Shown here: piece after piece, positions 4,522 through 14,466 of the stretch
How positions within the stretch are numbered: position 1 is the stretch's first letter
Layout of the letters: each line of letters starts with the position of its first letter
Source: Herpetosiphon giganteus
Lineage (GTDB): Bacteria > Chloroflexota > Chloroflexia > Chloroflexales > Herpetosiphonaceae
Length of the DNA stretch: 50,726 nucleotides
Direction: 5' to 3'
Assembly: GCF_016907925.1 (NCBI RefSeq)
Contig: NZ_JAFBCZ010000040.1
Span: forward strand, 1-50,726
Made by a program: the position numbers and the translations under genes
The notes under the pieces: generated by a model
Databases searched by the model: none
Seen by the model: only the letters and a program-made list of their open reading frames with translations
What the model was told of the DNA's origin: nothing

Positions 4522-5051
4522 AAACTGAACCCCTGCCTGTCGGGGCGATGCTTCCAAGTAAAATTTCTGACAAATCAATCAAAAAATATACAAAGTTTTA
4601 AACCCCTGCCTGTCGGGGCGATGCTTCCAAGAGACGCAAAAGCATATTATGAAAAAAACCCATTTGTTTTAAACCCCTGCCTGTCGGGGCGATGCTTCCA
4701 AGAAGGACATCCTGGAAGATGTTGGTGCGGTCAATGCGAGTTTTAAACCCCTGCCTGTCGGGGCGATGCTTCCAAGCTTCTCTGCTTGTCTGGCTATCGC
4801 GTTGCTTGTGGTTCTCGTTTTAAACCCCTGCCTGTCGGGGCGATGCTTCCAAGGTAGTTCCTAACAGAATAATGAACTACCTCTCATCTGTTTTAAACCC
4901 CTGCCTGTCGGGGCGATGCTTCCAAGCAAGCCAGTGGGCATTACGCTTATGACGCTTGCGTTTTAAACCCCTGCCTGTCGGGGCGATGCTTCCAAGAGGT
5001 TATTCAGGTTAAGGTAGTGCCACTGCGGCTCGGGTTTTAAACCCCTGCCTG
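4522..5051 (-). CRISPR. CRISPR array 1, leader-distal part (7 spacers)
   Basis: Eight copies of a 37-nt repeat that begins GTTTTAAACCCC and ends GATGCTTCCAAG on the plus strand start at 4522, 4595, 4666, 4740, 4817, 4890, 4960 and 5034, separated by spacers of about 33-40 nt. The copy at 4522 is degenerate in its first six bases. In the minus orientation this is the 3' end of the last repeat, as expected at the leader-distal end. The copy at 5034 is cut after 18 nt by an IS. The minus-strand repeat ends TTTAAAAC, a common form for type I and III repeat ends, which fits leftward transcription. The array is separated from its leader by the IS. Confidence 0.95.
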
Positions 5052-5231
5052 GAGGGCTGGGCTTAACATAGAATTGGTTCCCCTGCCCGATCCATCAGGG
5101 TCGGGGGGCGACACCGATCCGCCGTAGCGCGACACCCATGCCCCAATCGGGGTCGTTTTCGACACCAGGCGACTCGCTATCGGGTACGATACGGGTATCA
5201 GATCCAACCATCCCCAGAATAGGAGTCGCTG

Positions 5232-6674
5232 ATGCTGGATCGCATCATACCAAACATCCTTCGTCGCTTCAAGCACCCTGTGCCCACCGTGCCCGTGTCC
5301 GATCGTGCCCTGCTACCCACCCATCCCCGTCGTCCCTGCCCGCTCTCCATGCCGGATCTCCCCCCGATCATTGCCGCTGATCCCACCGCTGCTGCGGCCC
5401 ATCAGTGGCTCGCCCCCATTCCGTGGCATGCCCTGCCGCCGCTCAGTGACCGCCCTCGGCCGGGGCCGCGTCCCGCGCCGCGTGCCCCCTTTCTCGCCGC
5501 GTTCCTCCTCAAACTCGATCTCCAATTGCCCTCCATGGGGCATCTGCGCCGCTATCTCCTGCGCCATCCCGCCCTTGTCTGGACGCTCGGCTTTCCCCTC
5601 CGGCCTGACCCTGCCGCCCCGCTCGGCTTCGATGTCGCCGCCAGTGTCCCGTCGCGTCGTCAGTTTGCCCGTGTCCTGCGAACCTTGCCCACGCCCATGC
5701 TCGACTTCCTCCGCATGGCACTCGTGCGGCGCATTCGTGATGCCCTCCCACCGGAGCACCATGCCACCTTCGCCGACACCATTGCGGGCGATACCAAGCA
5801 CATTTTGGCGTGGGTGAAAGAGAACAATCCCAACCGCTTTGCCCCTGATCGCGCCAAGAAGCAGGTGCAACCCCCCGGCGATCCGGACTGTCGGCTCGGC
5901 GTCAAGCGCCGGAGTAACCAGCAGCCGACCCCCACCACCGATGGTCAATCGCCAACCCAGAGTAAGGCCGAAGCCTACTGGGGGTACGCCAGTGGCATTG
6001 TCGTCACCCGCACCCCCTTCGGCTCCATCGTGCTTGCCGAACACACCCAACCGATCAATGCGGGCGATATGACCTATTTTGACCCGCTCATGGCGCAGGT
6101 GGAGCAGACGCTCGGTCGCCGACCGCGCAATGGCGTGTGGGATGCCGCCTTCGACAGCCAACGGGTCTATACCTACTTCCACACGGCTGGCGGGATGGCG
6201 GCGGTTCCGGTGCGCAAGACCAACCAGCCACGGCAGTTTTCGCCCGACGGGTTGCCGCTGTGTGCCGCTGGCTTGGCCATGCCGCAACAGTTTACGTATG
6301 CCATGAACACCAATGGCCCGCCACAAGAGCGGGCACGCCATCGCTGTCCGTTGCTGTACCCGACGGCCACCGGCGAGCCATGCCCAACGAACGACAAACA
6401 TTTTGCGACGGGCGGGTGTGTCACGACGATCGGGACGCAAGTTGGGGCAACACTGCGCTGGACGATCGATCGTGGGTCAGCGACCTATAAAGCCTTGTAT
6501 CGCGAACGCGCGTTGGTCGAACAGATCAACAGCCAAGCGTATGCCTTGGGGATCGAATGGCCAAAACTGCGTCGTCAAAGCGCGGTCGCGGCGTGGACAT
6601 CCTTAATCTATGTGGTGATTAACCTGCGCGTGGTGCATCGCCAGCAGGGAACACACGACCCGATCCACGCCTAA
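5232..6674 (+). CDS. DDE transposase of the IS, 480 aa
   Basis: The frame starts at an ATG six bases after AGGAG. After a proline- and arginine-rich N-terminus, DDE-type signatures appear: FADTIAGDTKHILAW (Asp near 187), VWDAAFDSQRVY (Asp near 304) and YRERALVEQINSQAY (Glu near 430). The last matches the Y-(2)-R-(3)-E style helix of IS4-like and IS1182-like transposases. A cysteine pair between the second Asp and the Glu (HRCPLLYPTATGEPC) suggests a zinc-binding insertion. The length is normal for a complete enzyme and no disruption is visible, so it may be active. It is the only convincing plus-strand protein gene in the window, and its GC content is higher than that of its surroundings. Confidence 0.85.
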   Translation: MLDRIIPNILRRFKHPVPTVPVSDRALLPTHPRRPCPLSMPDLPPIIAADPTAAAAHQWLAPIPWHALPPLSDRPRPGPRPAPRAPFLAAFLLKLDLQLPSMGHLRRYLLRHPALVWTLGFPLRPDPAAPLGFDVAASVPSRRQFARVLRTLPTPMLDFLRMALVRRIRDALPPEHHATFADTIAGDTKHILAWVKENNPNRFAPDRAKKQVQPPGDPDCRLGVKRRSNQQPTPTTDGQSPTQSKAEAYWGYASGIVVTRTPFGSIVLAEHTQPINAGDMTYFDPLMAQVEQTLGRRPRNGVWDAAFDSQRVYTYFHTAGGMAAVPVRKTNQPRQFSPDGLPLCAAGLAMPQQFTYAMNTNGPPQERARHRCPLLYPTATGEPCPTNDKHFATGGCVTTIGTQVGATLRWTIDRGSATYKALYRERALVEQINSQAYALGIEWPKLRRQSAVAAWTSLIYVVINLRVVHRQQGTHDPIHA

Positions 6675-6896
6675 GGTGGCATGCGTCTCGTCCGTGAATC
6701 GCCATGGGGATGGCTTGGATGGATGGACGGACGCAGCCGCAGCGATCAGGCAACGGCCACAGCGGCGGATCAGGGATGATCGGTCGGCGTGATCGGCTGT
6801 CCGTACATCAGCCAACGCGGCGACGAAGCACACCGATGGGCTACCGCTGCGCGGGATTGCGGGCAGCATAACGGGCGATGGGGCGGATCTGCCCAC
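6675..6896. other. Noncoding right arm of the IS
   Basis: GC-rich sequence between the transposase stop and the right inverted repeat. I see no gene in it. Together with the terminator at 6897 and the inverted repeat at 6980-6988 it makes up about 310 bp of noncoding IS sequence. Confidence 0.5.
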
Positions 6897-6919
6897 AAAA
6901 AAACCACGCCTTGCGTGGT
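6897..6919 (-). terminator. Rho-independent terminator in the IS right end
   Basis: On the minus strand, ACCACGC and GCGTGGT pair around a three-base loop and are followed directly by a run of seven U residues. Transcription from the CRISPR leader at 7242-7397 runs leftward and meets this terminator after only three spacers. It would also shield the transposase from antisense transcription. Confidence 0.7.
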
Positions 6920-6988
6920 GATCGGCCAGCGGCGGCGCGGATCAGCGAAAAAACCTGCCAAAACCCCTCAGGAATTCGTCCAGCCCTC

Positions 6989-7241
6989 CTGCCTGTCGGG
7001 GCGATGCTTCCAAGACTGAGGGGTCGCGCAATCCATGCCCCGTTGCGTCCGTCTTGGGTTTTAAACCCCTGCCTGTCGGGGCGATGCTTCCAAGCGTGGA
7101 CCTATCAGCACGACAACAACCCCCGCACCGGGTTTTAAACCCCTGCCTGTCGGGGCGATGCTTCCAAGGTAGACATGAGGGATAAAACAATCAGTACAGG
7201 AAGTGTTTTAAACCCCTGCCTGTCGGGGCGATGCTTCCAAG
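6989..7241 (-). CRISPR. CRISPR array 1, leader-proximal part (3 spacers)
   Basis: The remainder of the interrupted repeat (6989-7014, from CTGCCTG onward) is followed by intact repeats at 7058-7094, 7132-7168 and 7205-7241 with spacers of 43, 37 and 36 nt. The 3' part GATGCTTCCAAG is identical to the repeats left of the IS. These spacers adjoin the leader and should be the most recently acquired. Including the part left of the IS, the ancestral array had 10 spacers and 11 repeats. Confidence 0.95.
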
Positions 7242-7397
7242 TCCTCTGTGTCCACTTTCGGAAATAAATCAACTCCCTGAGCCACATTCAGTCCTGCCAA
7301 TTGACCACGTACTTGCAGCATAGAGAGCATCACTGAATTATGTCAAATAAAAGCGATTCGTTCCGTTGCTGTGTCCATTGTACCAACCCTGTCAATC
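7242..7397 (-). promoter_or_regulatory. CRISPR leader of array 1
   Basis: The sequence right of the last repeat shares several blocks with the sequence at the same place beside array 2: TCCTCTGTGTCCAC directly after the repeat, CATTCAG, AATTATGTCAAA, TGTGTCCATTGTA and CCTGTCAAT. This conservation beside different repeats marks it as the leader and fixes the direction of transcription as leftward. On the minus strand TACAAT in the distal block could be a -10 element. The distal end overlaps the stop codon of the neighbouring gene (7392). Confidence 0.75.
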
Positions 7398-8570
7398 TCC
7401 CAATGCCGCTTTTACCTTGCGCACGGTATTCACCGCCACACCAGCAGCCAGCGCTGTCTCGCGCAACGACATGCCTGCTGCAAGGCACTGGATAATTGCC
7501 TGACTACTGGGCTTGGCCAACAACACCGCGTTCGCCTGGCGTGAGCCTTTGGGTCGGCCAACATGCACACCCGCCTGCCGCGCCGCCTCCATGCCTGCCT
7601 TGGTTTGTTCGCGGTGATACGCGATCTGTGCTGCCCGCTGCGCAGCGATTTCCTGCTCCAGCTGCGCCTGAAACATCGCCTGCATTATTGGCGAAGGCAT
7701 GCCAGCGAGGACGGTTTCTTCAACAGTGGTCAAGACCTTTGCAGGCATTCGGCGCAGATCGCGCAGCGTCGCTTTCAGGTCAGCAAAATCGAAATATTCG
7801 GTGAAATTGCCGATTGCGCGACGCTGGTCACGATACTTAAATTTCACATACGGCTCCACATGGCCACGATGGGGAAACACACCAAGCACCTTCACCGCCG
7901 TTGTGCCAACATGGGGCATGAGCGCTGCCTGAATCTCTAAAATCCGCTCCTCGATTGGACGGCTCGTCATCCCCACTTTATAGAAATGCTCCGTATTGGT
8001 CTGTAGCTCCAGCACATACAACGTGCACCGTAAGACCCGCTGCCACTGGGCGCGGTAGAGCATTAAATCCGTCTCGGCCTCCGCTGTCGCAACCGCATTG
8101 CCCAACTTCCATGCCGTGGCTAATCGTTGATCAAGCTGGGCATGCACCATGGCCAATCGCGCATCATGGACCTGGCTAAAGAGATTCACGGACAGAAGGC
8201 CAAACGGAATTTGGCCAAGCTTCGTCAGTTCATGCTGATGGGTATAGTCGTTGTAACGCAGTAATTTCTCATTGCACAGCCATTGGGTATCGCTACGTTG
8301 ACCCGACTTAAATGCGTGAAGTTCGGCCAATAGTTTTGGGGATACATGCAAGGTAAAGGAATGGAAAAAGGGCAACAGCGGCAGATCGGTCGTGCGCTTG
8401 GCAGGGTTGCAGGTCGCACCGTTGTGCGCAAAATGATGCGCGACTCTTGGGCCTTTCTTCGCCACCAGTCGCCCATGACAATAGGGGCAGTGCAGATCGG
8501 ATCGCCCACGCGGGGTGTCGCTGATGTGGACGAGACCACGTTCATCCGATACGCCGTATTCAAGCCACAT
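7392..8570 (-). CDS. CoiA-like zinc finger / GIY-YIG / resolvase-HTH protein, 392 aa
   Basis: Three modules are visible. Residues 1-55 resemble the N-terminus of competence protein CoiA, with CPYC (28-31) and HHFAH followed by a cysteine (about 45-54). Residues 184-263 read LYVLELQTNTEHFYKVGMTS with RPIEERILEIQ, a T5orf172/MUG113-type GIY-YIG nuclease domain. Residues 323-342 (TKAGMEAARQAGVHVGRPKG) and a C-terminal HTH (about 357-388) are typical of the DNA-binding end of serine resolvases, but no recombinase domain is present. It is probably a DNA-binding endonuclease. ATG 8570 (MWLEYGV) follows AAAGGG; ATG 8609 lies at the predicted transcription start and would give a longer, leaderless product. 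The gene sits between the two CRISPR arrays, its stop inside leader 1. Confidence 0.65.
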   Translation of the reverse strand: MWLEYGVSDERGLVHISDTPRGRSDLHCPYCHGRLVAKKGPRVAHHFAHNGATCNPAKRTTDLPLLPFFHSFTLHVSPKLLAELHAFKSGQRSDTQWLCNEKLLRYNDYTHQHELTKLGQIPFGLLSVNLFSQVHDARLAMVHAQLDQRLATAWKLGNAVATAEAETDLMLYRAQWQRVLRCTLYVLELQTNTEHFYKVGMTSRPIEERILEIQAALMPHVGTTAVKVLGVFPHRGHVEPYVKFKYRDQRRAIGNFTEYFDFADLKATLRDLRRMPAKVLTTVEETVLAGMPSPIMQAMFQAQLEQEIAAQRAAQIAYHREQTKAGMEAARQAGVHVGRPKGSRQANAVLLAKPSSQAIIQCLAAGMSLRETALAAGVAVNTVRKVKAALGD

Positions 8571-8615
8571 CACACAACCCTTTTCGTGATACACGTTTTT
8601 TGATGGCATAAGTGT

Positions 8616-8643
8616 ATCATAAAAAGGGGTCTGTAGAAGACAA
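8616..8643 (-). promoter_or_regulatory. Sigma-70-like promoter for the GIY-YIG gene
   Basis: On the minus strand TTGTCT (8643-8638) and TATGAT (8621-8616) are separated by 16 bases. The expected start of transcription falls about at 8609, at or just before an in-frame ATG. That favours translation from the later ATG at 8570 behind AAAGGG, or else leaderless translation from 8609. Confidence 0.5.
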
Positions 8644-8670
8644 CGAACCATGCAAAAACACGGGCAATCC

Positions 8671-9666: not shown

Positions 9667-12228
9667 TCAATCTCTCGCAACAACAGTATCATACAACCCA
9701 TAGTGCGTTAGATTGGGGTGGCTCTCGATGCCCGTATAGCGGAGCGATGCATCCTCATACCGACGGAACGCAAATACGGCCTGATTCATCTGCTCGGTGT
9801 TAAACACCCGAAGCTCTACGAGCAGTTGGAAATCTTCGACTGTCAGGCCAGTAACTATGTAAAATAGCTCCGGTTCCAGTTTTCTGATCACATCTTGTAG
9901 TGTATTTTCGCGAAAGTCGGTCAAATACATAAATGCCGGAATTCGCGTGGCAAATTTGATCAATTTCTTTTGGATCTGCTGGCGTTTAGATTTATATTCG
10001 TATTCTTCGGCGGTAAGTTCCTTCTCTTGGTTGGGGGTTAACGAACCATCCTTGGCACCAGCCTTAAGTGCCTTCACCTTCTCGCTCTTATTGATGATCG
10101 TCTCGATGATGTTGTCACCCAATGTGCGCCAGCCTTCGATACGCTCCACGGCAGCCAACGCCTCTGGATTGTTAAGGATTCGGCGCAGGGTGTCATTGTC
10201 TACGTTGACAAGTAGGGCACTCTCCCACTTACGAGCTAATAATGTGGCCGAAGTACCTGCTATAGCAATATCAAGAATGCCGCCAGCGTCAATCTGTGTC
10301 ATATTGGCACCATCGTAGGCTAGCACAGGCAGGAACGAGATGAGGTCACGAACGGCGTGTTCTGGATTTTCGTTGTTGGAAGAAAGACCAATACCGTACT
10401 CTGAAAGCTGGCGTAGCGCCCGCGTTGGAGCAAAGTCAAAGACAAAACAGACGGGTTTGAGAATCTCCTCCTCGTTCGGGTCATTACCGTTGGGGTTCTT
10501 AATAGACCAAGGTGATTGTACACGAAAAGCAGCCTGAAAGTAGGTCTCTGGCGATTTCAGGTTACGCAGCATCAGGATCGACGACCACTGAGGCACCGTA
10601 ATACCCGTGGTGAGTTTGCCACACGACAAGGTAATGGTTTTACTTTCCAGTCCGCTACCAATGTATTTGCGCACAGGTCTCAACGCCTCCAGCCCAATGC
10701 CTGCTGCGGAACCGGCAGCGACAATCACCGTATAGTCGTGCCAGAAAACATTGTTTCTCTCCGCCAGTAGATTGGCCATAGCGTGGCATGCGGCAACATT
10801 GGGCATAAACCAGAACGCATGTTGTAGGTAGGGCAACAGGCGCACGTCGGAGTAGGGGAATGGCGGCCTCGAACTGGTCTTGAGATGCGCCACTCCTGTG
10901 AGCATGTAGCTGCCACGGATGATGTCCAGCCACTTCTGCACATCGTGCTTGTGTTTGAAGGTAGCCTGTTTACCCTGTCCCGTTGCTTCAAAAAATGCAT
11001 TCAAATCGAACTCGTCGAACTCTCCGGCGCTGGCAATCGCCAGCAATTCATCAGGCATCTGATAGGTGAGTAAGCACATTTCTGGCATAGCACCGTAAGG
11101 ATTCCATTGGTCAGGATAGGTTACCGCAAATTTGGCACGGGCACGCTGCTCATCAGTGTACGTCCAATTAAAAATCTGTTCCTCGATAAACTCACCAGTA
11201 GCCATTGCACGAAATGGTGTACCAGAAAGATAGAGATACGCCTTAGTCGTAATGGGAAGGAACTCAGGCTCGGACTCTGAAAGCTCTACAAACTCTTCCT
11301 CGAAATCCTCAATGCTTACACTCCTGCTGGGCTTGCCGGAAAGAGTCGTGCCATACACAGCGTTAATCTCTTCTTTTATTTTGTCTTCACCCTCAAACAG
11401 TTCCTTGGCGCTGTCTCGCCAAGCACCAAAGTGATACTCGTCGAAAACGACAAGATCCCAGTTGATTGTGTGTAGCCATCCATTCTTCGGTTTGATATTT
11501 CCAGCTTTATCACGACCGAGTAGGTCTTGAAAGGAGCCGAAATAGACTACTGGATCGCGATGATTAACCTCTGTCGGATTAAGGTCAGATATGCGGGACA
11601 GATACTGCCAGCCGTCAAAATCTCTGTGTGCTTCGAGATCCGTTTGCCATGCATCTTCAACAGCAGGTTTAAAGGTGACAACGAGTATACGTTTGGCACC
11701 AAGCCGTTTGGCAAGTTGATAGGCAGTGAATGTCTTACCGAAACGCATTTTAGCGTTCCAGAGAAAACGCGGGACGGCATGCATATTCTCCTTCCAGATG
11801 GAGTGAAAGTACGCATATGTTTTGTCAACCGCCTCTTGTTGTTCAGGACGCATTGCAAACGTCTGGTGATGTGTACCACTAAAGTGGTTGCCGCTACGTA
11901 GTTCGCCGATCACCGTCTGTACATCAGCGATAGTACAGCGCATCCATTCAAGTTTTGTGTTTACGAATCCCTTTTTGATTAATGCAGCACGTACTTCGTA
12001 GTCGCTAAAGAAACTACCATCATCACGAATCGCTAGTTCATCAAGTTCGATTGTGTAATTTGTTATTGCCGCCGTTTTGAGCTGCTCAGCGACACGCTGC
12101 TTCACATTACGTGTTGTTTGCCCCACCTTGAGCAGACCAACGTGCGTATCATCGTGGATCGTATAGGCATAAATACGGGGTTTGACTTCTGGCTTGGGTA
12201 CAAGAATTTCCTCAATGGGCTTGCTCAT
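9667..12228 (-). CDS. GIY-YIG / SF2 helicase restriction subunit, 853 aa
   Basis: The N-terminus (18-100) is a GIY-YIG-type domain: RIYAYTIHDDTHVGLLKVGQ followed by TTRNVKQRV. A superfamily 2 helicase core follows: Q-like motif FAMRPEQQEAV (about 124-134), Walker A AKMRFGKT (159-166), a DEYH box (263-266), motif III YLSGTPFRA, and the late motifs TTGITVPQW and YFQAAFRVQSPW. A C-terminal helical region is rich in charged residues. This is probably the restriction and translocation subunit working with the two methyltransferase genes upstream. The start at 12228 follows GGAGGG and overlaps the preceding gene by 17 bp; the longer frame beyond it is a shadow of that gene. The GIY-YIG domain is the likely nuclease, since I see no PD-(D/E)XK motif. 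Confidence 0.75.
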   Translation of the reverse strand: MSKPIEEILVPKPEVKPRIYAYTIHDDTHVGLLKVGQTTRNVKQRVAEQLKTAAITNYTIELDELAIRDDGSFFSDYEVRAALIKKGFVNTKLEWMRCTIADVQTVIGELRSGNHFSGTHHQTFAMRPEQQEAVDKTYAYFHSIWKENMHAVPRFLWNAKMRFGKTFTAYQLAKRLGAKRILVVTFKPAVEDAWQTDLEAHRDFDGWQYLSRISDLNPTEVNHRDPVVYFGSFQDLLGRDKAGNIKPKNGWLHTINWDLVVFDEYHFGAWRDSAKELFEGEDKIKEEINAVYGTTLSGKPSRSVSIEDFEEEFVELSESEPEFLPITTKAYLYLSGTPFRAMATGEFIEEQIFNWTYTDEQRARAKFAVTYPDQWNPYGAMPEMCLLTYQMPDELLAIASAGEFDEFDLNAFFEATGQGKQATFKHKHDVQKWLDIIRGSYMLTGVAHLKTSSRPPFPYSDVRLLPYLQHAFWFMPNVAACHAMANLLAERNNVFWHDYTVIVAAGSAAGIGLEALRPVRKYIGSGLESKTITLSCGKLTTGITVPQWSSILMLRNLKSPETYFQAAFRVQSPWSIKNPNGNDPNEEEILKPVCFVFDFAPTRALRQLSEYGIGLSSNNENPEHAVRDLISFLPVLAYDGANMTQIDAGGILDIAIAGTSATLLARKWESALLVNVDNDTLRRILNNPEALAAVERIEGWRTLGDNIIETIINKSEKVKALKAGAKDGSLTPNQEKELTAEEYEYKSKRQQIQKKLIKFATRIPAFMYLTDFRENTLQDVIRKLEPELFYIVTGLTVEDFQLLVELRVFNTEQMNQAVFAFRRYEDASLRYTGIESHPNLTHYGLYDTVVARD

Positions 12229-13807
12229 TATCACTGCCCTCCCCCCATGAGACAGGTTTGATCTGTGACTCAATATATTCCTGTTCTTCTGTGATAATTC
12301 CGTACTTTGCGTAAAGTTCAGCATCAGTCCATATACGATCCCAACTCTGCATTGGTACCCAGGTGTACGTAGATTTAGTGGCATCTTGCGTAATCTTTCG
12401 CAATGAGACAAGAAATCGCAAAAATCGTGAACCCAAGTATGACCGCACACTTTCTGCCTCAGACAAACTATTCACATAGAAAAACAAAAATGTTTGCGTA
12501 CATACCGATGGAGATGGAGCAATAATCGGTGTTCCAAGAACATAATCGGGCACAGTTATCGCGCCAGACCCTGCCTTTGGAACTAGGACTTTCCATGTGT
12601 CAATAAGCCCTGCACTCTTTACAACTTTATTACGGTGAATGTATCCTATATACCGCTTCCCATTTCGGGCATAGTGTAAAGGTATATCACCACGCTCTCT
12701 AGTGTCATGAAATTGATTAAAGTTCGAAGTCCATCCAAACTCCTTATCAGCAGAAAGGATAGACATAATTGAACGTTCATCCTTCGCAAGGACTTTATTT
12801 AGGATTGATATAGCACGGACATCTCGAACAAATACGTCATAATCAGATAAATTACGCTTCGTTGGCCCAACAGACACCCCATCACGGCTTATCGTTACTT
12901 CGCAGTCTCCACTGTGCGCAGCATCCCACAAGAAGTAGCAAACTCCACCCTTCACCTCAACACTACTGAATACTTCTTTAGCAACCGGATAATCTATAAG
13001 CGTTCGTATACGTTGATCGTTGAGCATAGTCTTACGGAATTCATTCAGTCCTAGCCCGGCTGTCATCCAACGTGATGGGATGATCATGACCAAGTATCGT
13101 GGCTCAAGCATTTTTGCCTGTTCAACAAAATGGTGATAGATTGGAACATCTCTGGTACCACCATCACTTGCCAATTGATATGGTGGATTCCCAATAATCA
13201 CATCAAACTGCATATCCCCTCCAAAAAACTCGCTAATCCGGGTCTTAATGTTGTTAGTGTGGATAAATGGATAAGCGTGGGTTTCCAATCCCGCGCCGCG
13301 ATCGAGAGTACCTTGACTTGCACCACAAAATGTACACTTTGCGTTGACCCAAGTATGCTTCAACTGCTCAAACCAGATATTGCCCGCCTCACCATCAAAC
13401 CCCTTAGCAATCGAATGTTGACCATTAGCATTCTTAGAGCAGTAAACACTGCGCCGTGCCAATAAGCTAGTGAGGTGGGTAATGGCGATACCGTACACCT
13501 GTCGTTTTAAGATGTGGTTGATTCGCTCCTCAAGGTTGGGGATTTTGGAGGCCAACCCAGAAGTAAGACGACTCGTAATTTCACGCAGGAAGATACCTGA
13601 CTTAGTAAATGGATCAAGAAAACGAACAGAACTGTCCTCCCAGATATTTGCACCGCTATTATTCGCTGCCCACGCTTCTGCTACCATATCTAACATGTGA
13701 TTAGCGAGTTCCGGTGGCGTAAACACTTCGTCATTGGAAAGATTAGCAATACACGACAACACATCAGGGTTACGTCCACGCAACGAAAATTGGGCTTGGG
13801 TACTCAT
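12212..13807 (-). CDS. Adenine methyltransferase subunit with NPPY motif (Eco57I-like), 531 aa
   Basis: Residues 27-40 (DEVFTPPELANHML) match motif X of N6-adenine methyltransferases. The catalytic motif IV is clear: FDVIIGNPPYQ (NPPY at 207-210). The SAM-binding motif I reads FLDPFTKSGIFL (63-74), lacking the usual GxG. A CTFC pair near 158-161 may bind zinc. The C-terminal half (VLVPKAGSGAI, SSRFLRFL-like segments) resembles a target-recognition region. The ATG overlaps the stop of the upstream gene (ATGA) and lies four bases after AGGAGG. It probably forms a complex with the smaller subunit, which has a good motif I and no NPPY. Eco57I-type enzymes are the closest family I recognise. Confidence 0.75.
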   Translation of the reverse strand: MSTQAQFSLRGRNPDVLSCIANLSNDEVFTPPELANHMLDMVAEAWAANNSGANIWEDSSVRFLDPFTKSGIFLREITSRLTSGLASKIPNLEERINHILKRQVYGIAITHLTSLLARRSVYCSKNANGQHSIAKGFDGEAGNIWFEQLKHTWVNAKCTFCGASQGTLDRGAGLETHAYPFIHTNNIKTRISEFFGGDMQFDVIIGNPPYQLASDGGTRDVPIYHHFVEQAKMLEPRYLVMIIPSRWMTAGLGLNEFRKTMLNDQRIRTLIDYPVAKEVFSSVEVKGGVCYFLWDAAHSGDCEVTISRDGVSVGPTKRNLSDYDVFVRDVRAISILNKVLAKDERSIMSILSADKEFGWTSNFNQFHDTRERGDIPLHYARNGKRYIGYIHRNKVVKSAGLIDTWKVLVPKAGSGAITVPDYVLGTPIIAPSPSVCTQTFLFFYVNSLSEAESVRSYLGSRFLRFLVSLRKITQDATKSTYTWVPMQSWDRIWTDAELYAKYGIITEEQEYIESQIKPVSWGEGSDNEQAH

Positions 13808-14466
13808 AAAGCCTCCTGTGGAGCTATGCCAATAGCTGCTAGCTCACCCACGGTTAGTGGTGGCCAAGTTGCATCTGGCTTAAAAATTTCATGTATACCA
13901 AGGTTGGCAAAGAGCGACCCTTCCATATTGAACGTTGATGCAAGGGCAAGTGTGTCATAGCGAAAATTGCGACGTTGGAATTTACCTTTACCCAAATAGC
14001 CCCACTCAACAAAAATAATCGGCTGGTTATCAATGGTACGCATTATCAACGCATCGCCATGCACTAGGTTCAGGGTAAGGACATACGATGCAGCCTGATA
14101 AAGGTCATCCGATTCGTCGAGTTTAAGATAACCACTAAAAATCTCCAGCAAGTTCTCGCGACACTCGGTGATGTTATCCTTCAACAATTCGATACCATAG
14201 ATACACATTAGGGCTAGCAGGGCATAGTGTTGGCGTTCAAAATTTGACTTACCGTACCGAAGTTCCACAGCAGCCAGTTTGCGCTGTAAGATCGGTATCA
14301 GAAAATTACCACTGCCGCATGCTGGCTCCAAGAAACGGGCATCAATGCGCTGTGTTTCATCCTTTACCAAGTCGAGCATAGCCTCAACTAGCCAAGGTGG
14401 GGTGAAAACTTCGCCGTGATCAGCAACACGTTGTTTGGACTTGATGTATTGGGGGGGGTGATTCAT
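13804..14466 (-). CDS. Methyltransferase subunit with SAM-binding motif, no NPPY, 220 aa
   Basis: Motif X (GEVFTPPWLVEAMLDL, 18-33) and a textbook motif I (FLEPACGSGNFL, 45-56) are present, followed by LMCIYGIELL. No NPPY/DPPY motif follows; the expected region reads DNQPIIFVEWGYLGKG. The protein is therefore about half of a normal gamma-type adenine methyltransferase and probably supplies the SAM site to its neighbour, or else is a structural partner. It is the first gene of the three-gene operon, and the stop overlaps the next start. The ribosome site is weak (AAGAAGC some way upstream). Confidence 0.7.
   Translation of the reverse strand: MNHPPQYIKSKQRVADHGEVFTPPWLVEAMLDLVKDETQRIDARFLEPACGSGNFLIPILQRKLAAVELRYGKSNFERQHYALLALMCIYGIELLKDNITECRENLLEIFSGYLKLDESDDLYQAASYVLTLNLVHGDALIMRTIDNQPIIFVEWGYLGKGKFQRRNFRYDTLALASTFNMEGSLFANLGIHEIFKPDATWPPLTVGELAAIGIAPQEAL

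What the first reader, a model, noticed from the sequence alone, without database searches (positions are those of the whole stretch)
5045..6995. An IS has split a CRISPR repeat in two
The sequence shows a 1937-bp IS with 9-bp inverted repeats (GAGGGCTGG/CCAGCCCTC) and the 7-bp repeat segment CTGCCTG on both sides. Removing the IS and one duplication gives a perfect 37-nt repeat and a continuous 11-repeat array. It is a clean case of an IS landing inside a repeat, and it gives the exact ends and duplication length of this IS.
Basis: seen in the sequence. Interest (0 to 1): 0.65.

Follow-up and report, generated by a model that had tools for sequence, protein, structure and literature searches.

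The report
Jumping gene that lands in CRISPR repeats
The DNA element splitting this CRISPR array belongs to a widespread family of bacterial jumping genes that often land at one particular spot inside CRISPR repeats of quite different sequence, so the split looks like targeting more than an accident.

Summary
In detail: a 1,937-bp IS (5052-6988) with 9-bp ends and a 7-bp duplication splits one of 11 repeats of a CRISPR array. The reading 'a clean case of an IS landing in a repeat' is too modest. This Herpetosiphon-like genome holds three places of the IS; every readable junction lies in a repeat of a different array. I found 69 full-length copies of the transposase family, nearly all in Chloroflexota. 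Of 64 with a readable junction, 28 lie in visible CRISPR repeats, 7 in repeat-like sequence without a visible array, 29 elsewhere; 13 of those 29 form one transposase clade. Control: 0 of 60 other transposases from searches of 14 host genomes lie within 600 bp of an array, against 26 of 68 with the same detector. The targeted repeats differ in sequence, yet the right junction is after repeat nt 10 or 11 in 21 of 21 measured. Sites elsewhere show no dyad but a modest excess of the repeat's GTTTCAAT motif at the same distance. Best reading: a Tn5-fold IS family that targets CRISPR repeats; how it recognises them is inferred. Ten paper searches found no report of this.

The parts
4522..5051 (.). 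left part of the CRISPR array: degenerate terminal repeat 4522-4558, six intact 37-nt repeats, and nt 1-18 of the split repeat (5034-5051)
5045..5051 (.). target-site duplication, left copy CTGCCTG (repeat nt 12-18)
5052..6988 (+). insertion sequence, 1937 bp, one long transposase ORF
5052..5060 (+). left terminal inverted repeat GAGGGCTGG
5232..6674 (+). DDE transposase, 480 aa; Pfam DDE_Tnp_1 above cut-off; model aligns to Tn5 transposase (Z 16.4)
6903..6919 (-). terminator-like hairpin on the minus strand inside the right end; stem kept with changed loop in L002 and L013
   Evidence: the scan finds no more such sites than shuffles
6980..6988 (+). right terminal inverted repeat CCAGCCCTC
6989..6995 (.). 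target-site duplication, right copy CTGCCTG
6989..7241 (.). right part of the array: nt 12-37 of the split repeat and three intact repeats
7317..7346 (-). promoter-like site (TTGACA-18-TATGCT) reading leftward into the array; possible leader side
   Evidence: consensus match only

Best explanation
This is a DDE (Tn5-fold) insertion sequence of a Chloroflexota family whose transposase prefers CRISPR repeats as targets. My proposed mechanism: it recognises the conserved 5' end of the repeat (GTTTCAAT; on the other strand this is the DNA of the crRNA 5' handle, recalled) and joins its ends about 11 nt further on, giving a 6-8 bp duplication. Because that motif is what otherwise unlike CRISPR repeats share, one transposase can land in arrays of many sequences, and arrays serve as numerous, usually non-lethal landing sites. 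Shown by sequence: enrichment in arrays, fixed register, one orientation in the visible-array cases, shared ends. Inferred: direct recognition of the motif, any part played by the dyad or by Cas proteins, and the benefit to the element.
For: Three of three places in the own genome have their readable junctions in repeats of three different arrays. Of 64 readable full-length copies, 28 are in visible CRISPR repeats and 7 in repeat-like sequence. Automatic detector: arrays within 600 bp of 26 of 68 full-length and 12 of 44 partial segments against 0 of 60 control transposases; Fisher 8e-9 for the full-length and 9e-9 for all 112 segments. Right junction after repeat nt 10 or 11 in 21 of 21 measured. 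CRISPR insertions occur in the Ktedonobacteria, Chloroflexia and Anaerolineae parts of the tree. Sites elsewhere carry an excess of the repeat-5'-end motif at the same distance: 28 sites, 6 at p<0.05, Fisher 1.2e-4.
Against: 29 of 64 readable copies are elsewhere, and two copies with identical transposase in Anaerolineales H5_CFX5 lie one in a repeat (L035) and one outside (L037). The motif idea arose from 10 of the 28 sites; on the 18 not scored then, only 3 reach p<0.05 and Fisher is 0.018. L071 sits in a repeat whose first 11 nt had already been replaced by another IS end. Motif and dyad lie at fixed places in most repeats, so arrays cannot separate them. No transposition was observed, and no empty site was found.
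Confidence: 0.65

Rival explanations
1. The transposase recognises the hairpin or cruciform of the palindromic repeat, as some ISs do with REP palindromes, and not its sequence.
For: In 14 of 14 repeats with both junctions read, the duplication centre is within 0-2 nt of the repeat's best dyad (mean 0.96 vs 7.5 for shuffled repeats). In L071 the element sits in a repeat that had lost its first 11 nt.
Against: In 8 of 12 repeats with one junction read, the script's best dyad lies elsewhere in the repeat. Ten non-CRISPR sites with exact duplications show no dyad at the duplication (mean stem 1.9 vs 2.3 shuffled).
Confidence: 0.3
2. Targeting is indirect: a host protein that binds CRISPR repeats (Cas1-Cas2, Cas6 or an array-binding protein) recruits the transposase.
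For: Repeats of many sequences are hit in one register; repeat-binding proteins exist (Cbp1 in Sulfolobales, PMC10883916, passages seen).
Against: Insertions lie deep inside arrays (31 repeats detected left and 22 right in L035, 49 and 51 in L041), not at the leader-repeat junction where Cas1-Cas2 works (recalled).
Confidence: 0.18
3. No targeting: insertions are random and only those in dispensable DNA such as arrays survive.
For: Arrays are usually dispensable (recalled); 29 of 64 readable copies are elsewhere.
Against: 0 of 60 other transposases of the same hosts lie beside arrays; survival would not fix one position in repeats of unlike sequence.
Confidence: 0.03
4. A single ordinary accident in this array.
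For: ISs in arrays are known singly, for example IS6110 in the CRISPR locus of the M. tuberculosis complex (PMC7708916, passages seen).
Against: 28 full-length insertions of one family in visible repeats.
Confidence: 0.01

Closest known systems
ISs that target REP palindromes (ISPsy8, ISPa11, ISPpu9, ISPpu10, ISRm22, ISRm19; PMC1525189, abstract seen)
   Same: an IS with strong preference for a class of short palindromic repeats
   Different: here the class is CRISPR repeats, one family hits many repeat sequences, and sites outside arrays show no dyad
IS6110 in the CRISPR (DR) locus of the M. tuberculosis complex (PMC7708916, passages seen)
   Same: an IS splitting a CRISPR repeat
   Different: one locus and one repeat, and that paper reports insertions in spacers as well as repeats; here many repeats, genera and classes in one register
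IS1000A/B of Thermus (PMC6352166, passages seen) and ISC1229 of Sulfolobus (PMC10883916, passages seen)
   Same: an IS containing or adjoining CRISPR-repeat sequence
   Different: ISC1229 is IS110 family, IS1000 too by recall; the authors read them as recruitment of IS segments to CRISPR and as Cbp1 binding sites, not as insertion targeting
IS insertions into cas genes (PMC10359306, passages seen)
   Same: ISs acting on CRISPR-Cas
   Different: those disrupt cas genes; these sit in array repeats
IS1182 family transposases (NF033551) and Tn5 transposase
   Same: DDE catalytic domain; 12 of 12 A2 members match IS1182; Tn5-like fold
   Different: 57 bits for the window protein against a cut-off of 270; 12% identity to Tn5

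Membership tests
IS1182 family (NCBIfam NF033551) | score above the curated cut-off of 270 bits | tested here: not met
   57.3 bits for the window protein; 12 of 12 A2 members match at E<=0.001, their scores were not shown
Pfam DDE_Tnp_1 (PF01609) | score above the gathering cut-off of 23 bits | tested here: met
   26.6 bits for the window protein; only 4 of 12 A2 members match at E<=0.01
Tn5/IS4-like DDE fold | fold like Tn5 transposase over most of the protein | tested here: met
   AF2 model pLDDT 78.4; VIA-align Z 16.4, 276 residues, rmsd 4.2 to 1muh_A; Foldseek alone had no match at E<=0.001
Tn5/IS4-like DDE fold | conserved acidic triad | tested here: inconclusive
   D187 and D304 nearly invariant, E430 invariant in A3; L041 lacks D304; catalytic roles assigned from recall
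REP/palindrome-targeting IS | palindrome at the insertion point | tested here: inconclusive
   present in CRISPR targets with both junctions read, absent at 10 non-CRISPR sites
IS110 (bridge RNA) family | DEDD transposase, little or no target duplication (recalled) | tested here: not met
   DDE_Tnp_1 match and 6-8 bp duplications
CRISPR-associated Tn7-like transposon (CAST) | several tns genes plus Cas effector genes in the element | tested here: not met
   1.94-kb element with one long transposase ORF
Casposon | Cas1 as integrase | tested here: not met
   the transposase matches DDE_Tnp_1 and IS1182 models, no Cas1 model

The most novel reading that the evidence does not exclude
A phylum-wide IS family has evolved dedicated targeting of CRISPR arrays: its transposase reads the one element CRISPR repeats have in common, the DNA of the crRNA 5' handle, and strikes the repeat at a fixed distance whatever the rest of its sequence, making host immune memory its landing pad; one derived clade has lost this habit.
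Probability: 0.45. Interest if true: 0.85.

Novelty: new variant of a known kind. Interest (0 to 1): 0.76.

Why it matters
CRISPR arrays would be a real, sequence-tolerant home for a transposon family, not just a place where ISs land by chance. It gives a handle on how mobile elements remodel immune memory (array splitting; joining of different arrays through IS copies, as L059 and L185 suggest), offers a natural comparison of targeting and non-targeting relatives, and points to a single-protein transposase with an unusual target preference.

Tried and rejected
Empty site in the genus: none found. Cas genes beside the window array: the neighbouring ORFs scanned matched no Cas model. Plasmid collection: no match. 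IS ends rebuilding the repeat hairpin: hardly above composition (4.46 vs 4.01). Minus-strand terminator as a shield against pre-crRNA transcription: in the 3 Herpetosiphon copies, in 0 of 10 other copies scanned. Duplication length following loop size (5 of 7 vs 0 of 7, Fisher 0.02): left aside as confounded by relatedness. Foldseek alone gave nothing significant. Rfam, CRISPR typing and leader prediction were not run.

How copies were sorted. One search gathered 112 unique transposase segments: 68 of at least 1,000 nt, 44 shorter. One of the 68 (L059) holds two copies, hence 69 full-length copies. Junctions came from the automatic test and, for many copies, by eye. Set aside as unreadable: L049, L060, L109 (a very distant match), L146, L177. 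The 44 short segments were not read by eye as a set: 12 have an array within 600 bp, and those whose end I did read in repeats (L019, L024, L026, L066 first copy, L070, L163, L164, L195) plus the right-end piece L003 are outside the 28 of 64. L045 adjoins an array in another register and is counted as elsewhere. In the tree, L075 was labelled CRISPR although no array is visible, L046 (same place as L147) and L048 were left unlabelled, and L156 was left out as too short. The non-targeting clade was noticed after the fact. My odds for the best reading and the novel case were lowered after the recount.

Full report
What is there. The window is contig C40 of a 6.16-Mb genome in 85 contigs. Its same-genus neighbour G001 carries the copy also found in Herpetosiphon aurantiacus DSM 785, so the genus is taken to be Herpetosiphon. 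A 1,937-bp insertion sequence at 5052-6988 splits one repeat of an 11-repeat CRISPR array; ends, duplication and the perfect 37-nt repeat after joining were checked letter by letter. The IS carries one long ORF, a 480-aa transposase.

Other copies in the same genome. A DNA search found three places: the window; a full-length 98% copy on C52; and a 191-bp right-end piece on C28. The second lies in GTTTTAATCCC|CTGACGAG|GATTTTGG..., in an array beside cas2 and cas1. The third has only its right junction, after GTTTCAATCCC in the repeat read on that strand, followed by CTCGCCGTCGGGG. Three different repeats, same position and orientation. H. aurantiacus DSM 785 has one copy, also in a repeat.

The family. 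Relatives (38-98% identical in A3) came from 10 of 60 relatives, 59 loci of named genomes, 29 of 400 genomes of the phylum, 17 of 17 genomes reached through those loci, 39 of 396 of one class, 14 of 47 of another, 7 of 25, 15 of 158 and 2 viral-collection contigs. These sets overlap, and some matches near E 0.001 are weak. Two of the 59 named records bear other names (a Chromatiaceae and a Gracilibacteria MAG). Ends are mostly GAGGG...CCCTC (GAGGATT...AATCCTC in L042 and L048; L052 begins GAGCT), with 6-8 bp duplications where both ends are read.

Where they sit. One search reduced all family loci to 112 unique segments, 68 of at least 1,000 nt; one holds two copies, giving 69 full-length copies. 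Five are unreadable. Of the other 64, 28 lie in a CRISPR repeat with further repeats visible: L001, L002, L029, L033, L035, L040 (two copies), L041, L044, L046 (=L147), L052, L056, L058, L059 (two copies), L061, L064, L065, L066, L071, L074, L081 (two copies), L149, L185, L273, L289 (=L031), L308 (=L013). Seven lie in repeat-like sequence without a visible array: L063, L068, L075 (other orientation), L097, L175, L293, L309. Twenty-nine lie elsewhere: L030, L034 (=L016), L036 (=L023), L037, L038, L039, L042, L043, L045, L047, L048, L050, L051, L053, L054, L055, L057, L062, L067, L069, L072, L073, L078, L085, L145, L150, L155, L156, L194. Thirteen of the 29 form one clade with support 100/97 and no insertion in the CRISPR register (L042, L045, L047, L048, L050, L051, L053, L054, L055, L057, L062, L073, L150). 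Outside it, 28 of 51 readable copies are in visible CRISPR repeats.

Control and chance. With one detector and a 600-bp limit, 26 of 68 full-length and 12 of 44 shorter segments have a periodic array beside them. Among 60 loci of two other transposase families from searches of 14 host genomes, none does; one has a two-copy repeat about 1.4 kb away. Fisher p is 8e-9. The controls are the 60 loci that the two searches laid out, not all matches. The H. aurantiacus genome paper lists 11 under 'CRISPR repeats' (PMC3368417, passages seen); at an assumed 0.5% of the genome, 21 or more of 59 by chance would be 2e-33 (21 of 59 is the count in the loci).

Register. In 21 of 21 measured cases the right junction falls after repeat nt 10 or 11 (7 and 14). 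In 14 of 14 repeats with both junctions read, the duplication is centred within 0-2 nt of the repeat's best dyad (mean 0.96 vs 7.5 for shuffled repeats). Against this, in 8 of 12 repeats with one junction read, the script's best dyad lies elsewhere in the repeat. The repeats differ widely, e.g. GTCTCCGTCCCCTTGCGG, CTTTCAGTATCCTAAAATGG, GTTCCAATCCCTCAGGCGGG; what 25 of them share best is nt 1-11 (GTTTCAATCCC).

What is recognised. Ten non-CRISPR sites with exact duplications show no dyad at the duplication (mean stem 1.9 vs 2.3; CRISPR sites 4.2 vs 2.4). Scored with a matrix from repeat nt 1-10 at 16-19 nt from the junction, 26 sites gave 7 at p<0.05 and Fisher 9.8e-7. Two of these (L063, L293) may be CRISPR remnants; without them 24 sites give 1.6e-4, and the 11 with confirmed duplications 5.8e-4. 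The idea came from 10 of these sites; on the 18 others alone it is 3 of 18 and 0.018. So the motif is favoured but not proven. In L071 the left neighbour is the right end of another IS of the family, in a repeat whose first 11 nt are gone, which speaks against a strict need for the motif.

Direction. In the visible-array cases the transposase reads along the GTTTCAAT strand. If the leader lies at the right (promoter-like site at 7346-7317 minus, degenerate repeat at the left), pre-crRNA transcription runs against the transposase gene. A terminator-like hairpin on that strand is kept in the three Herpetosiphon full copies but not found in 10 other copies.

The protein. Weak IS1182 similarity below the curated cut-off, Pfam DDE_Tnp_1, and an AlphaFold2 model (pLDDT 78.4) that aligns to Tn5 transposase with Z 16.4 over 276 residues.

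Literature. Ten searches of the open library showed IS6110 in the DR locus, ISs in cas genes, ISs targeting REPs and elements with CRISPR-repeat-like segments, but no IS family described as targeting CRISPR repeats. I saw the listings, and passages or the abstract of the papers named here. Most subscription papers are outside that library.

Noticed in passing
window 9667-14466, minus strand: ResIII-like helicase (927 aa) and two adjacent methyltransferase pieces (531 and 220 aa) resembling a type IIG or related restriction-modification locus; the methyltransferase may be split.
   Followed up: no
window 7392-8651, minus strand: 419-aa protein with CoiA N-terminal and T5orf172 domains beside the right end of the array.
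   Followed up: no
L059 and L185: IS copies whose left and right flanks are parts of two different CRISPR repeats, as if recombination between IS copies had joined different arrays.
   Followed up: partly
L071 1-90: The right end of another IS of the family lies directly left of the duplication: two elements apparently inserted at the same repeat site.
   Followed up: partly
L273 (H5_CFX5 genome, G420): A decayed copy still sits between both halves of a split CRISPR repeat, next to further decayed copies in the same region.
   Followed up: no
L308 (IMGVR_UViG_2508501111_000003): A 78.8-kb contig filed in the viral collection carries a 98% copy flanked by the same array sizes as the H. aurantiacus copy; probably a piece of that chromosome.
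   Followed up: no
PMC6352166 and PMC10883916: IS1000 of Thermus and ISC1229 of Sulfolobus carry CRISPR-repeat-like segments; worth testing as insertions at CRISPR repeats.
   Followed up: no
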